NCBI GenBank assembly: GCA_022661535.1
Contig: JAKULF010000005.1
Location: forward strand, 1,798,001 to 1,862,000
Direction of reading: 5' to 3'
Origin: Eutypa lata
Lineage: Eukaryota > Ascomycota > Sordariomycetes > Xylariales > Diatrypaceae
DNA length: 64,000 nt
Shown: piece by piece, positions 28,316-49,264 of the stretch
Layout of the letters: each line of letters begins with the position of its first letter
Numbering within the stretch: position 1 is the stretch's first letter
Position numbers and translations under genes: made by a program
The notes under the pieces: generated by a model
What the model was told of the DNA's origin: nothing
Databases searched by the model: none
Seen by the model: the letters and a program-made list of their open reading frames with translations, nothing else

Positions 28316-28750
28316 ATGGCGGACAGTGATTATATCGGAGAGCTTGCTAGCTCGGTTCTGGAGAACCTACAATATCAACATGACTGGACAAATCTGCAAA
28401 TTCACACACGTTCACCTTTGGATCAGTCGCCTCTGCCACGACCCTTGATTTCGGGTCTACCTCCCCGGCGCCTGTACCTACACCCGGATGACCAGATTGA
28501 GATGCTAAAGAAGCATCGGAACCCGGATAAGGCTATCCCGGAAATACCTGAAGTGGAATGGGTTCTACCGACTCATCTAGCCGAGAAATGGACTCTGAGG
28601 GCATTCGCAGGAGTCTTCGATTCAATGCAGCCGCAGACCCCTCCAGCTGCGGACCGCCCTAAGAGAGTAGTGCTAGCTACAGTACATGACGATTCTACAA
28701 TAGTCTACTACTTAATGCATAACGGCATCGTCAAACCTCGACAGAACTGA
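28316..28750 (+). CDS. SEN15: tRNA-splicing endonuclease subunit Sen15, 144 aa
   Basis: A single exon. The protein is the small structural subunit of the heterotetrameric tRNA-splicing endonuclease (Sen2, Sen34, Sen54, Sen15), which excises introns from pre-tRNA. Its C-terminal domain is the nuclease-like fold without catalytic residues that pairs with Sen34. The family hallmarks are the N-terminal helix (residues about 5-40), the centre with RLYLHPDDQ and PEVEWVLPTHLAEKWTLRAFAGVFD, and the C-terminal strand pair VVLATVHDDSTIVYYLMHNGIVKPRQN read from 28676 onward, which is the most conserved part of fungal Sen15. Length suits the family. The stop codon lies only 6 bases from the stop codon of the convergent alcohol dehydrogenase gene, so the two mRNAs must overlap at their 3' ends. 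Confidence 0.93.
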   Translation: MADSDYIGELASSVLENLQYQHDWTNLQIHTRSPLDQSPLPRPLISGLPPRRLYLHPDDQIEMLKKHRNPDKAIPEIPEVEWVLPTHLAEKWTLRAFAGVFDSMQPQTPPAADRPKRVVLATVHDDSTIVYYLMHNGIVKPRQN

Positions 28751-28756
28751 GTGCCC

Positions 28757-30229
28757 TTATGGGGTGAATACCACCTTTTGGACCTTCATTTGATCAAACA
28801 TTTCATACCCTGATACGGCCGAGGACAAGGGCATGATGTTCTCGAACATAAATCTGCACGGAGTTAGCCACGTCTATATCGAGCAGGGGACTATCTAATC
28901 TTAGAAATGATATGAGACCAAACAAGACACTTACCCAAGAAGATGCTGCTTCTTCTTCAAGAGCTCGAGTGCATCGGGGAAAACAGCGCGAACGGGGCAT
29001 CTTCCCATCTGCAGGCGTACGTTTTTACTATTTTTATTAGTTAGCTATGAGGCCATACGTACGCATCAACGTTTACTTACCCGTAAGCTTCATGACCATC
29101 AAAGGGAATCTAACTCTATGTTAGTTATGATAAGAGAACCAGCCTGAAATATATCATACCTCTGCGTTATGAACTCCGATGCTACTGATGAAACCGAATG
29201 GTCGCAAAATATCAAATGCTGTTCTAAGCGCGGGGCTCAAACCAACCACCTCGACGACTATATCTGCTCCTCGGCCATCTGTGACTTCTCTGATCCTGGA
29301 TAGCATTCCCTCCTTGTCCGTTCTGAAGTTGAGCGGCTCAGCACCCAAGCTTTTTGCGAGTTCGAGACGGCTGTCTATGCTGTCGATAGCGAAGAGATGC
29401 TTTGGCTTGTACTCCAGTGCAGAGATTATGGCACACAATCCAACCGGACCACAACCTATGACGACTGCGGTTGCCTCGGAAGGCTTTTGCGATCCCAGAG
29501 CATTGAAAGCATTCCTTGCGCCGAAGAAGCCTGTCGGGAAGATGTCTGCCATTAGTATCAACGCCTTGTCGTCTATTTCCGGGGGCGCCTTCATGACGGT
29601 TCCATCGGCGAGAGGCACTCGCACGTATTCAGCTTGACCTCCCTGTTACGCGTTAATTTAACCGTTGACATTGGATCTTCGGTACTTACTATACGATAAG
29701 AATTAGCATCAAGATTTACAAGTACCAGGGGACATAGTCATATATACCATCTAAAGCTTCCGATCCAAATAACGTGCTTTGAGTGCATCGAGATGTGTGT
29801 CCCATCTTACAATAGAAGCAATCTAGGCAAGATAAGGTGAATGGCGCCACGATCTTGTCACCAATCTTGACAGACTTGACATTTTTGCCGGCGTCGATGA
29901 TGATTCCAGTGAACTCATGACCCATAATGAAGCCGCTTCCGCGACCCTTCTCATGGCCGCGGTATACATGGAGTTCACTACGAGGCATTTATAAGTTACT
30001 CGGATGAAACAGTATCAACATGTAACAATTTAACTCACGAGCCACACAAAGCCGTCGCTTGCACTTTGACTATAATATCACCGTCTTCTTGAACTGTTTC
30101 GTCTTAGCGAAAGTTCACTTATCTAGAAGCTGTGCAGATCTCCTTACTCCTGGGAACGGGTCGCTGCTGTAGTGAAACCTTGTACGGGCCATCGAATACT
30201 ACGGCGTTCATAGTAGAGGGAAGCGCCAT
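28757..30229 (-). CDS. Zinc-dependent alcohol dehydrogenase (MDR family), 355 aa
   Basis: Seven exons in transcript order: 30229-30148, 30093-30039, 29977-29749, 29642-29160, 29109-29081, 29027-28935, 28853-28757. Medium-chain dehydrogenases oxidise alcohols or reduce carbonyls with NAD(P) and catalytic zinc. Catalytic-site residues are C44 (LCGSELH), H66 and E67 (MGHEFTG). The structural zinc site is C96, C99, C102 and C110. The Rossmann fold carries VVIGCGPVGLC, followed by the FAIDSIDSRLELAKSLGAE strand-helix. All six junctions keep the reading frame and give family-like sequence, including exon 5 (IPFDGHEAYG, 29 nt) and the join to KNVRLQMGRCPVR. Intron 3 is treated separately as a probable stwintron. 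A second in-frame ATG lies six codons after the chosen start. Substrate is unknown. It is convergent with SEN15. Confidence 0.9.
29643..29748 (-). other. Probable [D1,2] stwintron in the dehydrogenase gene
   Basis: In transcript sense, exon 3 ends TTAGAT, followed by one G (29748), an internal intron of 59 nt (29747-29689; donor GTATAT, branch GCTAAT, acceptor TATAG), then TAAGTACC and so on to acceptor AACAG (29643). Removing the internal intron joins the lone G to TAAGT and creates a perfect GTAAGT donor for a 47-nt external intron. The two-step product is in frame and reads ALD-GGQAEYVRV, the full length expected in this family. A single conventional intron could work only by skipping AACAG for an AG four bases later, and would delete one residue. 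Stwintrons of this type have been described in ascomycetes. Confidence 0.7.
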
Positions 30230-33200
30230 GCTGATGTCTTGGAAGTCCTGGCTGTTCAGATACACCATCTACACTCACAGAATACTTGTTTTCTGCTCGG
30301 AGTCTTCAGAGGATCTTCAGAGAAGTTGCAAATGCGGGGGTAACTTAGTGGGGTCAATCAGACCTCTCGGAATGAAACCTCTCACACTAACCAAAGGGCG
30401 GGCTCCGCGGTCCCTTCTTTCTCTAATTTAGGTCGTCCCTACAGTTCATGTAGGTATTCAACTTTGTAGGATCAGGGTTGTTTTCTGGCTTCGTAGCACT
30501 GCCTTAGAGGTGTGTACGTTGTAGTCGTTTCATATCGTTTTGCCTTTATACAAAATTGCCAAGACATACCACCCATAGGTAATGAGCACCTACCATGATA
30601 TCACTCTATGTAGGATAAATTGGCAGGTAATTGCATCTCGGTAGATATAGATTCTACTACCAGTCTAATTTTTTTTGTTCCTAGTCGAATAGAACAATAT
30701 ACGATGCGTAACAAATAGTAGACTAGAAGAGGGGTTCATCAAGTAGATAATTTATAGATACATGTAGGTAGCTGCCCGACGATCCCTTATATCCGGATCT
30801 CGGACACCAGAAGTGCTTTGAGACTTTCAAGATCCTGTCGGAATATGTAGGAGCCTGCCTGCCGCGAATGCAAACGATAATGCGTCACTCGTGTCCTCTT
30901 GCCTACCTATGGTACACATGCCGGTTATGGTTGCAGAGGAAGGCAGACAACCGAGTGGCATGCGATAATGCAAGCCTTACTATATATGGTGCTATTTATA
31001 ATATCAGGGCGTCAACGATCCTCGTAACCATGTGTGACTTCGGTTATTCGGGGAGAATGAACGATGCGTTGAGAGAAAGGGGGGGATTTGACTTGGGATT
31101 CAAGCTAAATAACTACTGTATTAAAGCTTGTTTCGAATATATAATAATACCTATTGATTGTTTCTTTGATATGTCAACTAAAGCTTTATAAAACGAAAAA
31201 GGTGATTATATCAATGACCCGAGGATCCCGTCGGTACTAAACGTGAGGGATGTCGGTCACAACTAGGTGCGGCTCTCAAGGAGGCTCAGTAAACCCCGCA
31301 TGCCCACGACGGAGGCGGCTGAAGCTCGCAACTACCTACATCCCTACAGCCAACGTACATAAAGTAAGTCTTGGAGCAACCTGACTGTGCCACGTACACA
31401 AAGCATGTGCGTACGTACATATCTCCATCACACGGATTCGAGGTCATATGTAAGCAGTTCAAACACCCAGGATCGAGTGTATGCAATGCATGTCTGGCGG
31501 CCAATAGCCTGGTCGGAATATCGATCACCATACGACTATCATCCAGCCTGTCAGCCAGTCGCGGTGATCGATTGACGATGATACACCGCCTCGGTGCCGG
31601 GGGCCACAAGTGCTCACGAATTATCTCTACGTATGCTCGCTCACTACATGGGGGGGGGGGGCTATTCATCGTTGTGTGTTCTGGCGTGAACACATCACCA
31701 AGACAAGGTCAAGGGAACGAACGACCATCTAAGTTGCTCTCTGCTGGTGTGCTAATCGGAACCTTGGAAGCCAAGGGCCTACGCTCTTTCTTACAGCCAC
31801 TCCAAATAAGTGATGCTATGCCAGTCGTGTGCCCCCGTCGCTGATGCAGCTGCACGTAAGCCCCCCCATACATAGGATCTAATGTTATAAGACTCTCCGC
31901 CATTCCCGTATCTTTTAACACTCTAAGGATGCGGGAAAGTTACATCCGGCCAACTGCTTCGGGGGTCAGTCGCTAAGGATACTCGATATCGCCCTCTGAT
32001 ACGACGCTCTATTCTTGTCTACCTATACACACTCTCTGACACTGTTATCGCCGCCACAACCTAGGGGCATAAATATACATACTTACTTAACTAGATACTG
32101 TAAGGATAGTGCAAGCGAGATGGTTACACTAGGTAGTTGAGAAGCCCATGAGGTCCTACGAGTCCCAAAGGAGAAATATCGGCTAGCCAAGCCTGAGATC
32201 GAGCAAGCAGTTGACCTGTCGAGTTTGGGACGCGGCACGCTTGCTCTGCCGTTCATTGACAATTGGAGGAGGCTGAGCTAATCCCTGCATGCTCTACCGA
32301 CTTGGCTCACCCATGAGGCGGAGCTATTCTGCGTTGATCTCATATCCTGATTAGCTGAAGGAACTGAACCCCACACCCTACGTTTCTCCCGCTTCAGCTC
32401 TTCCTATGTATTTACCAGTTTTTACGCGAGGAGGACCTCGCTCGATCTCACACTATAACCTTGTTGTGCCTACCTCCAACGAGAGGTCGTTTCCCCGTAC
32501 TATCTAGAATTTCTCCGTCATACCGCCTCATCAGCATGCTTTTTTCTTTCTTTCTGTCTACATCATGCCCTTCCAGGCACCCTTTAACTAATGTCTTACC
32601 CGCATAAGCCATGTCGCCGCACTAGACAGCGAGTGTGGCTTCTACTACTCGACGTTTGCAGAAACAAACCCCTTTTCATTATCTTGACCATGCATCGTCC
32701 ATCCTACTACCTACATAGTACTACTATTCTATTCTCTACCCCGATGTCTCTCCGAAAATTTCCCCAGGGCTGCTCTCTCGATTTGCAATCGGGTTTTGAC
32801 CCCAATTTCTGGAGTTGAGTTACATCCGTTCTAGGACCGCCGGTGTTTGGTCCGCCTTGGGCACCTTCACCGCAATGCAGATTTGGGGTCGGCAGCAGAA
32901 GCGGCGGTAGCAGCAGCAGCAGCAATAATTAATAGAAGAGCAGAAGAAAAAAGAAGAGAGCCACAGCATGGTTGAGGCTAGCACATGTGCCGTGAATTGC
33001 GACCCACCAGATTACCAAAGGCGAAGACATTCCACACGCACCTTTTCAGGCAAGTCGGACCAGACAACCCTTGGAGATCTGGCAGAGGCCTCCCATTTCC
33101 CCACTGGCAGGACTTTCGTCGCCTAGAGTAGGTATTCCTAACCTTTTCGCAAGAGATGCAATATACATCAACGTAGGTAGGCGCATCATAGTATTGAAGA

Positions 33201-46584: not shown

Positions 46585-47801
46585 ATGCCTGTACAATCGA
46601 AGCCGGCCCCGCTTCCTCCGTGGGGTCTGGCTGTAGCTGGTTCTACCGGCGCCGTATTGGCCAATGCCTTGGTATATCCTTTAGATATGTTAGTTACAGC
46701 CCTCATTTTTCTTTCTCTCGCTCGATCGACTAGCTAGATTACTGACCTACTTTTCGTGACATTGTGTAGAGTGAAGACGCGCCTCCAAGTTCAAGTCAAG
46801 CGAGCTCCGGGAGCCGAGTACGGACCCGACGACTCCGAACCGCATTATGCGTCAACATGGGATGCTGTCTCGAAAATCTTTGCCGACGAGGGCATCAATG
46901 GCCTATATGCAGGAATCAACGGTTCGCTACTCGGCGTTGCCTCGACCAACTTCGCATACTTCTACTGGTACTCTACCGTACGCGAGTTTTATTTCCGATC
47001 GCAAAAGGTTCCCACGCCTCCATCGACCGCGATAGAGTTGGCGCTCGGCGCTGTCGCCGGTGCTGTCGCGCAGTTATGTACGATTCCCGTCGCGGTCGTC
47101 ACGACCAGGCAACAGACACAAAGCAAGTCGGAGAGAAAGGGTCTCATAGAGACGGCGCGCGAGGTCATACATAGCGAGGACGGCGTTTTTGGTCTCTGGC
47201 GTGGCTTGAAGGCTAGTTTGGTTTTGGTTATCAACCCAGCCATCACCTATGGCGCATACGAGAGGCTAAAGAATGTGTTCTTCCCGGGAAAAGCTCGTCT
47301 CACGCCAGGGGAGGCATTCCGTAAGTGCCCCATGGTCAACGCTGAGAAGAGAACGTCGGCTAACGACAGTTTTAGTGCTTGGTGCCATGTCGAAGTCACT
47401 GGCGACCATTGCGACTCAGCCTCTAATCGTTGCTAAGGTCGGGCTCCAGTCAAAGCCCCCCTCGCAGCGACAGGGCAAGCCATTTAAGGGTTTCATCGAG
47501 GTGATGCAGTTCATTATCCAACATGAAGGTCTGCTGGGTCTCTTCAAGGGAATTGGGCCTCAGATCTTGAAGGGCCTGCTCGTACAGGGTATCCTCATGA
47601 TGACCAAGGAGCGGTAAGTTCTCTCCACGTTTCCAATTGGAAACCTCAGGACATGGACATTGGCTAACCCGTATCATCAGTATGGAACTCCTGTTTATCT
47701 TACTATTTAGATACCTCCGCCAGCTTCGATCGCAGCAACTGGCGAAGGCGGCGGAATTGGCTTCTAAGGTCAAGGTTGCCGTACCTCTGACTACGAAATA
47801 A
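46585..47801 (+). CDS. ANT1: Peroxisomal adenine nucleotide carrier (ANT1/PMP34 type), 337 aa
   Basis: Exons 46585-46688, 46770-47320, 47376-47613 and 47681-47801. Mitochondrial carrier superfamily: three repeats of two helices, each with a Px(D/E)xx(K/R)-like signature, here PLDIVKTRLQ at residues 33-42, IPVAVVTTRQQ in repeat 2 and QPLIVAKVGLQ in repeat 3. The repeat sequences (ANALVYPLD, YAGINGSLLGVASTNFAYFYWY, GLFKGIGPQILKGLLVQGILMMTKER) resemble the peroxisomal ATP/AMP carrier of yeast Ant1, which supplies ATP for fatty-acid activation; length agrees. The first junction restores PLDI-VKT. The last intron ends at TCATCAG (47680) after GCTAAC, giving MELLFILLFRYLRQL; a second AG at 47710 is also in frame and would drop ten residues. 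It could instead be another PMP34-like carrier for CoA, FAD or NAD. Confidence 0.85.
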
Positions 47802-49264
47802 ACGGTTAGACTTGGGAGACTAAAGAGGAAAGAAGAGCTCTCTCCCTCTCTCTCTCTTGTGTATCTGAGCTACTAAATCCATCTAGATGTAGAAGGTATG
47901 AAAGCGTATATACGGCAGGGAGTTCATTATCGCGATTTGTTCATAGGAATTGATATATTGGCACTGGCGTTCTAATGAAATCTTCGGCTTGCTTATGAAA
48001 TGTATGGAACCACACTCATGCATGCTTAGATATCTCAACTTACATTGACAAGCGATACATGTTGAAAGCCTCAAGCATGTGCTCGGATAAAGGATGTGCC
48101 CATCCAGGTCGGGGCTTTTATTCATAGTACAGTAGCTTGATGCCCGTACATATACGTGTAAATTGAATCTAGTGTACCACGAGCCAGAGGGAGTCCGATT
48201 TATCAGGACTATTATATTTGTACAGAGACCAAAAGATTGTTCTGCCTATTTGAACCAACAACATCGTGAAACCAGGGACGACGACAAGATACAAATCCGT
48301 GTCGGGTAAACCGTACTCTATAGCCTAGTATTATGGTAGTCAAAAGACTTGCGACTGATATTTCAGGACCCTAAGATACATTTAGATTGACTAGAAGCAT
48401 CTCATCTCAACATCCTATCTTTCTACAGCTCGTAACTATCCATAGTTGACGACTGGGAGCCACAACATAACCACTCGCTGACAAGATGGATATTGTCTAG
48501 AGGTAGCCTGATCGTTACCTCCTTGATCGAGAACACACCAAATCGTTGAAATCGATGTGGATTGGTTCAGGGGGTGATTTGCGACCCCTCCCAGCTGTGG
48601 TCATTGCTCGATTACGTCCTATGAACTACTTTGCAGATTCGCCTTATATCTCTGTATAGCATGCTATTTCCACTTCACACTGGTGTAGTCTAAGCTTAAT
48701 CTCGTCAGCTCAGACATTTCTGTACTATCATGTGATTCTCAACGGCCACTTCCAAAAGTATATGGCCTAGGCCTCAACAATACACGTATCGCTAGCCCAC
48801 TCCGTATCTTGCTTGATAACATAGCTACTGGCAGGTGTAGTGAGACGACGCACTCAGGATTCGTAACATCCACTTCCCTTGGCTTGATCACGATGAAGAG
48901 ATAGAGCTCGCTATTATCACTTTCTACGTTCAGGTAAGTTACGGTAGGTATATGTACCTAGTACTAAGTTGTTCAAGATTGGCAGCTGTCGTACAGCTGT
49001 AACTAACTAACGGTAGTTACATATTTGCATTCAGTGGCTGACACTATCATCCAAGCCAACAGCCCCACTCATTGATAGTTTAACCCGTGCACTGTCCCAC
49101 GTTGATACCATTTTAATCTGTGGCTTGACCCCTCTCGCTTGTAGGAAATTTCCACCCACACTTAGCCAAAGAATACTCAACGAAACCAAATTTCTATCTT
49201 CACAGCCAACTTCCACTTGTGACTTCGTAATCCTTCACAAGCACAACAGCACAACACCGACGCC
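47802..49264. other. Intergenic, no gene seen
   Basis: A CT-rich microsatellite-like tract (about 47838-47861) lies just after the carrier stop. The rest is unremarkable non-coding DNA leading to the ribosomal protein gene promoter. Confidence 0.6.

What the first reader, a model, noticed from the sequence alone, without database searches (positions are those of the whole stretch)
29643..29748. Stwintron nested in the donor of an alcohol dehydrogenase intron
Seen: a complete 59-nt intron (GTATAT ... GCTAAT ... TATAG) sits between the first G and the following TAAGT of a second intron (47 nt, ending AACAG). Only the two-step removal restores the frame with the expected ALDGGQAEYV sequence and uses the first AG after the branch. 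Known: [D1,2] stwintrons, where a whole intron splits the donor, are described in ascomycetes. This is a site where one intron must be removed before the other's donor exists.
Basis: partly seen in the sequence, partly recalled or inferred. Interest (0 to 1): 0.8.

Follow-up and report, generated by a model that had tools for sequence, protein, structure and literature searches.

The report
Overlapping twin intron in dehydrogenase gene
A fungal dehydrogenase gene seems to contain two tiny introns that share one letter, so the cell would have to cut them out one after the other; this is a known but uncommon arrangement that has probably led to wrong public models of this gene.

Summary
On the minus strand, 29748-29643 (106 nt) interrupts an intact zinc alcohol-dehydrogenase-like gene of a fungus that is Eutypa lata or very close to it. 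None of 480 one-step introns tried restores the ALDGGQAEYV junction; removing a 59-nt and a 47-nt intron in succession does. Of the 120 listed homologues, 113 have the junction without gaps; the 7 broken there are exactly the two Eutypa lata and five Monosporascus rows.

The stated mechanism needs correcting. The donor GTAAGT already exists in the unspliced RNA, because its G is the last G of the 59-nt intron, and the next exon starts with G. Either intron can go first, and both orders give the same mRNA. This is an alternatively spliced [D1,2]/[A2,3] stwintron, a published sub-type, not one with an obligatory order. No RNA evidence was available, so the splicing itself is inferred. No sister copy was found in the genome. 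Verdict: real, a new member of a known kind, modest interest. Side result: three more [D1,2] candidates with long open frames in the same genome, not checked against homologues.

The parts
29643..29748 (-). whole twin intron in the [D1,2] reading (106 nt, phase 0, between codons GAT and GGA); in the [A2,3] reading the same product comes from removing 29642-29747
29689..29747 (-). intron A, 59 nt: donor GTATAT (weak, no G at position 5), branch point GCTAAT, acceptor TAG
29643..29689 (-). intron B, 47 nt: donor GTAAGT, branch point ATTAAC, acceptor CAG; complete in the unspliced RNA, overlaps intron A by one G
29689..29689 (-). shared G: last base of intron A and first base of intron B
29748..29748 (-). 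G that rebuilds the GTAAGT donor if intron A goes first
29642..29642 (-). first exonic G downstream; rebuilds the TATAG acceptor if intron B goes first
28757..30268 (-). host gene, 7 exons and 6 interruptions, 368-aa zinc alcohol-dehydrogenase-like protein; 96 of the 120 listed homologues start in the column of the Met at residue 14 (30229), so the first 13 codons are doubtful
29749..29977 (-). exon upstream of the twin intron, with four cysteines (SCLDCFYCKMGHTSRC) that I take, from memory, for the structural-zinc loop
29160..29642 (-). exon downstream of the twin intron
29681..29687 (-). AAGTACC, complementary to GGTACTT at 29720-29726; could mask the GTAAGT donor in the unspliced RNA, but the fold is no better than chance

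Best explanation
This is a functional spliceosomal twin intron made of two complete U2 introns that overlap by a single G (29689). Both cannot be removed at once, but either can go first. If the 59-nt intron goes first, G29748 joins TAAGT and rebuilds the donor of the 47-nt intron ([D1,2] route). If the 47-nt intron goes first, G29642 joins TATA and rebuilds the acceptor of the 59-nt intron ([A2,3] route). Both routes give GAT-GGA-GGT-CAA. Shown: the sequence, the frame, the exclusion of the one-step introns tried as a route to the conserved junction, and the identity of the two products. Inferred: that the RNA is really spliced this way. I favour both routes being used, with the 47-nt intron often first (about 0.55) because its donor GTAAGT matches consensus and GTATAT does not. 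The confidence given is for two-step removal of a twin intron whose sequence permits both orders; the strict-order rival below is a case within it, so the numbers do not add to one.
For: Zero of 480 one-step candidates give the expected junction. Both removal orders were computed and the products are identical. Of 120 listed homologues, 113 have the junction without gaps: 59 LDGGQA, 50 LDGAQA and one each of LDGSQA, LDGAQS, LNGGQA, LEGAQA; none has the LDGQA that the 109-nt intron would give. The 7 rows broken within five residues of the junction are the two Eutypa lata and five Monosporascus rows, which are all the rows of those genera in the list. At the other five junctions 2, 3, 3, 0 and 5 of 120 rows are broken. 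Interior shuffles reproduce the parse in 5 of 20000. The closest paralogue match, 60% identical (C11:1345870, L002), reads LLDGAQAEYV without interruption.
Against: There are no RNA reads. The donor GTATAT lacks G at position 5, is outside the 24 donors of the published search model, and is not used by the gene's other five introns (GTAAGG, GTGAGT, GTATGA, GTAAGT, GTAAGT). The external branch point ATTAAC is not the best form. Motif hits alone are near chance in this window. Some of the broken models are broken at other places too: P0033 at junctions 1 and 2, P0032 and P0072 at junction 6, so weak annotation explains part of it.
Confidence: 0.88

Rival explanations
1. Strict [D1,2] stwintron: the 59-nt intron always goes first, then the rebuilt 47-nt intron. 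(A case within the best explanation as far as the two-step removal goes.)
For: It gives the right product; a 7-nt pairing GGTACTT/AAGTACC could hide GTAAGT in the unspliced RNA; intron A has the better branch point (GCTAAT against ATTAAC).
Against: Intron B is complete in the unspliced RNA and has the consensus donor, and G29642 makes the reverse order productive. The fold is no better than shuffles (z -0.23, 75 of 200 shuffles as good).
Confidence: 0.3
2. A conventional 109-nt intron, 29747-29639, donor GTATAT and acceptor GGGAG, giving ALDGQAEYV.
For: In frame and stop-free.
Against: It needs a GAG acceptor four bases beyond a CAG and drops a residue that none of the 113 intact listed homologues lacks. 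It does not explain the internal GCTAAT..TAGTAAGT (5 of 20000 shuffles give a full parse).
Confidence: 0.06
3. A larger one-step intron as in the public Eutypa lata models: 29810-29633 (P0033 type) or 29850-29643 (P0032 type).
For: Both are in frame and stop-free, and P0033 and P0032 have exactly these junctions (DCFY|SEYV and GDKI|GGQ).
Against: They delete two or all four of the cysteines of SCLDCFYCKMGHTSRC, which 113 of the 120 listed homologues keep; the seven that do not are P0032, P0033, four of the five Monosporascus rows and P0061. They look like gene-caller workarounds.
Confidence: 0.03
4. The gene is decaying and the region is a frameshifted or insertion-damaged pseudogene.
For: The public models of close relatives are truncated or broken.
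Against: The reading frame is intact over all seven exons with six spliceable interruptions, and the coding exons agree with two Eutypa lata records at 287 of 289 and 288 of 290 aligned residues.
Confidence: 0.03

Closest known systems
[quoted passage not shown] the original papers were not read: one was looked up and is not held)
   Same: Two overlapping U2 introns, a G before and a G after, two mutually exclusive orders, one mRNA.
   Different: Different gene and fungus; for Helminthosporium the authors say they demonstrated it, here there is no RNA.
Uniquely occurring [D1,2] stwintrons of Hypoxylon sp. CO27-5 (PMC9024468, sections 2.1, 3.1 and 3.4 read)
   Same: Internal intron between G1 and T2 of the external donor, no sequence-similar copies found, seamless position in a conserved gene.
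   Different: 106 nt is shorter than the shortest there (114 nt), though close to the 109-nt stwintron of Aspergillus niger (PMC5639578, passage); the internal donor GTATAT is outside their search model; Diatrypaceae (if Eutypa) rather than Hypoxylaceae; the G downstream adds the second route.
Sequence-similar (sister) [D1,2] stwintrons of Hypoxylaceae and Xylariaceae (PMC12403724, introduction, one results section and discussion read)
   Same: [D1,2] layout, order Xylariales.
   Different: No sister copies found in this genome and no near-terminal inverted repeat.

Membership tests
[D1,2] stwintron | complete U2 intron between nucleotides 1 and 2 of the donor of a second U2 intron | tested here: met
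[D1,2] stwintron | two successive removals restore the reading frame and conserved protein; no single canonical removal does | tested here: met
   (0 of 480 one-step candidates), for conservation
[D1,2] stwintron | internal donor within the 24 donors of published search model A | tested here: not met
   GTATAT is not listed; this is a search filter of the authors, not part of the definition
[D1,2] stwintron | splicing intermediate lacking only the internal intron | not testable with these tools
   no RNA data held
[D1,2]/[A2,3] alternatively spliced stwintron | G directly downstream of the [D1,2] stwintron, so that both orders give one mRNA | tested here: met
   definition
[D1,2]/[A2,3] alternatively spliced stwintron | both intermediates detectable | not testable with these tools
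   no RNA data held
sister (propagating) stwintrons | sequence-similar copies elsewhere in the genome | tested here: not met
   only itself at E up to 10 (the search skips simple repeats and very common words)
sister (propagating) stwintrons | near-terminal inverted repeats | tested here: not met
   one 7-nt inverted repeat, internal, not near the ends
zinc alcohol dehydrogenase (ADH_N plus ADH_zinc_N) | both Pfam domains above the curated cut-off | tested here: met
   86.2 against 23.5 and 66.7 against 31.8 bits; no NCBIfam family reaches its cut-off (0 of 20 matched)

The most novel reading that the evidence does not exclude
An order-free twin intron old enough to be shared by Eutypa and Monosporascus, and thus a long-lived [D1,2]/[A2,3] stwintron outside the families surveyed in the papers I saw. 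Loss of either half in relatives would leave ordinary introns one nucleotide apart (phase 0 or phase 1), a natural test of one-base intron shifts.
Probability: 0.5. Interest if true: 0.42.

Novelty: new member of a known kind. Interest (0 to 1): 0.3.

Why it matters
The class is known, so this does not change the picture of splicing. It adds a compact member from (probably) Diatrypaceae; 'Eutypa', 'Monosporascus' and 'Diatryp' do not occur in the main texts of the three Hypoxylaceae/Xylariaceae stwintron papers searched. It is of the sub-type in which the order of removal is open, so the two intermediates can report which donor the spliceosome picks first. And it is a likely reason why the deposited models of a conserved enzyme are wrong at this spot in 7 of the 7 listed rows of Eutypa and Monosporascus; the cause is inferred.

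Tried and rejected
One-step introns: rejected, 0 of 480 give the conserved junction. A first version of that script had an off-by-one exon end and wrongly printed 0 in-frame parses; one search replaces it.

Sister copies in the genome: none found. Symmetry or stable RNA fold: one 7-nt internal inverted repeat and folds no better than shuffles.

Two other hits of the published motif model in the window were rejected: at 47613 an ordinary 67-nt intron (47614-47680) of a mitochondrial-carrier gene joins MMTKER to MELLFILLF in frame and the rest of the match is chance; 63550 minus lies where I saw no convincing coding frame across the site.

Fungal DNA of Monosporascus or other Diatrypaceae: I found no collection here that holds fungal genomes other than the window's own, so a twin intron there is inferred from broken protein models only. 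In P0001 and P0002 the extra residues VASTNDFDTLQ / VVSTNDFDTLQ before GAQ would fit a retained intron end, but back-translation cannot prove it.

Full report
What is there. The window lies in an unnamed 54.5-Mb assembly of 29 contigs. On the minus strand, 30268-28757 holds a gene with six interruptions (54, 61, 106, 50, 53 and 81 nt) and an intact 368-aa product. Pfam gives ADH_N and ADH_zinc_N above the curated cut-offs; of 20 NCBIfam families matched none reaches its cut-off; the nearest solved relatives by sequence are zinc-containing alcohol dehydrogenases 5yln and 4cpd. Of the 120 listed homologues 96 start in the column of the Met at residue 14, so the true start is probably 30229. The protein agrees with Eutypa lata UCREL1 P0033 at 287 of 289 aligned residues, the two differences lying at that model's first residue and at its broken junction, and with Eutypa lata P0032 at 288 of 290. 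The organism is therefore Eutypa lata or very close to it; this is an inference, as no tool names it.

The interruption. Exon 3 ends GCTTTAGAT and exon 4 begins GGAGGTCAAGCTGAA. Between them lies G, then a 59-nt sequence GTATAT...GCTAAT...TATAG, then TAAGT...ATTAAC...AACAG. I enumerated one-step GT-AG, GC-AG and AT-AC introns of 40 to 300 nt with a donor in 29900-29691 and an end down to 29562: 480 candidates, 71 in frame and free of stops, none giving ALDGGQAEYV. Successive removal of two GT-AG introns of at least 40 nt within 29775-29600 gives it in 4 ways: the 59+47 register in either order, and a 63+43 register with poor sites in either order. Removing the outermost sites in one step leaves one extra G and a stop after ALDGRSS.

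Is the expected junction really expected? The best 120 of 5850 homologues are listed; the rest I did not see. Of the 120, 113 have the junction without gaps: 59 LDGGQA, 50 LDGAQA and one each of LDGSQA, LDGAQS, LNGGQA and LEGAQA. None has the shorter LDGQA that the in-frame 109-nt one-step intron would make. The other 7 are broken within five residues of this junction, and they are exactly the two Eutypa lata and five Monosporascus rows. At the other five junctions of the gene 2, 3, 3, 0 and 5 of 120 rows are broken. Two of the Eutypa junctions can be read off the window: P0033 corresponds to an intron 29810-29633 and P0032 to 29850-29643. Both delete cysteines that 113 of 120 rows keep. The simplest reading is that gene finders that know only single introns cannot pass this spot in these fungi. 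That the same twin intron sits in Monosporascus is an inference from proteins; I had no DNA. Against over-reading: P0033 is also broken at junctions 1 and 2, and P0032 and P0072 at junction 6.

Chance. Holding the first seven and last five bases and shuffling the 94 bases between them, 5 of 20000 shuffles contain a complete parse with branch points in range; 1144 contain the hybrid AG-donor motif alone. A blind motif scan of the 64 kb is not telling: the relaxed model hits once (this site) against a mean of 0.55 in 40 shuffled windows, and the published model A hits twice elsewhere against a mean of 0.3; neither of those two survives inspection. The strength of the case is the position at a conserved coding junction and the frame.

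How it works. The sequence shows otherwise. The G at 29689 is both the last base of the 59-nt intron and the first base of GTAAGT, so the 47-nt intron 29689-29643 is complete in the unspliced RNA. Removing the 59-nt intron first makes GATGTAAGT; removing the 47-nt intron first makes TATAGGAGG, since the downstream exon begins with G. Both then finish as GATGGAGGTCAAGCTGAATACG; the two end products were compared by script and are identical. Because the introns share a base, the first removal takes a base from the other intron's site and an exon-side G makes it good. Which order prevails cannot be read from sequence. GTAAGT is the better donor, GCTAAT the better branch point (consensus as); a 7-nt complement GGTACTT/AAGTACC could cover GTAAGT before the 59-nt intron leaves, but 75 of 200 shuffles fold at least as well. 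I put about 0.55 on the 47-nt intron often going first.

Comparison with the known. Stwintrons are an established class; ten papers in the library hold the word (listing). PMC5639578 (Background section read, other passages) states that an [A2,3] stwintron occurs whenever the exon after a [D1,2] stwintron begins with G, that this gives two mutually exclusive ways to the same mRNA, and that this was shown for the alternative oxidase of Helminthosporium solani and found in an efflux pump gene. PMC9024468 (abstract and sections read) describes 117 [D1,2] stwintrons in one Hypoxylon, the shortest 114 nt, and the search model; it reports no prevalence of the [D1,2]/[A2,3] sub-type among them. PMC12403724 (abstract and sections read) describes 288 sequence-similar ones and one-step missplicing that leaves one G, which here would cause the ALDGRSS-stop product. 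Neither Eutypa, Monosporascus nor Diatryp- occurs in the main texts of PMC12403724, PMC9024468 or PMC8469720 (term searches); 'twin intron' with 'Eutypa' finds 0 papers and 'stwintron' with 'alcohol dehydrogenase' one, on intron sliding in mammals. Supplements were not open to me and the founding papers of 2013, 2015 and 2017 (Nucleic Acids Res.) were not read, so prior listing of this site is not excluded.

Other copies. The 106 bases match only themselves in the genome at E up to 10. The closest paralogue match, 60% identical, on contig 11, has no interruption at this place. A genome-wide pattern for the internal half of [D1,2] stwintrons gives 36 matches against 24 for the reversed pattern, a small excess. 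I examined the 30 loci returned of those 36 matches. Four separate places had a full parse with at least 30 open codons before and 15 after, three of them with long frames: L033 (108 and 262 codons), L045 (160 and 270) and L053 (137 and 143), with L046 weak (38 and 17). In L045 the piece after the join is a fungal transcription-factor domain entered at profile position 8; the other five pieces scanned have no Pfam match. In these three the next exon begins with A, so they would be order-bound [D1,2] cases; no control was run for the open-frame test and they were not checked against homologues.

Verdict. Real, well supported from sequence, mechanism class known, order claim corrected, no RNA proof. 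New member of a known kind, interest 0.3.

Noticed in passing
L045 (G000 contig 6, 291519-291578, minus), twin intron of 148 nt: Candidate [D1,2] stwintron in a fungal transcription-factor gene: 160 and 270 open codons on the two sides, and the Fungal_trans domain is entered at profile position 8 right after the join.
   Followed up: partly
L053 (G000 contig 8, 5533120-5533196, minus) and L033 (contig 1, 999927-1000006, plus): Two more [D1,2] candidates with long open frames on both sides, no Pfam domain found in the pieces.
   Followed up: partly
P0032, P0033 (Eutypa lata); P0001, P0002, P0008, P0009, P0072 (Monosporascus): Public protein models of this dehydrogenase are broken at the twin-intron junction in all seven listed rows of these two genera.
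   Followed up: yes
window 28748-28759: The stop codon of a Sen15-family gene (tRNA-splicing endonuclease subunit, function recalled) on the plus strand (28748-28750) and that of the dehydrogenase on the minus strand (28759-28757) are six bases apart, so the two transcripts probably overlap at their 3' ends.
   Followed up: partly
window 29159-29110: Intron 4 of the same gene ends CTAACATAGAGTTAG; the gene model needs the third AG after the branch point, so two nearer AGs are skipped.
   Followed up: no
window 47613-47809: The published stwintron motif model gives a false positive over an ordinary 67-nt intron of a mitochondrial-carrier gene, a useful negative example.
   Followed up: yes
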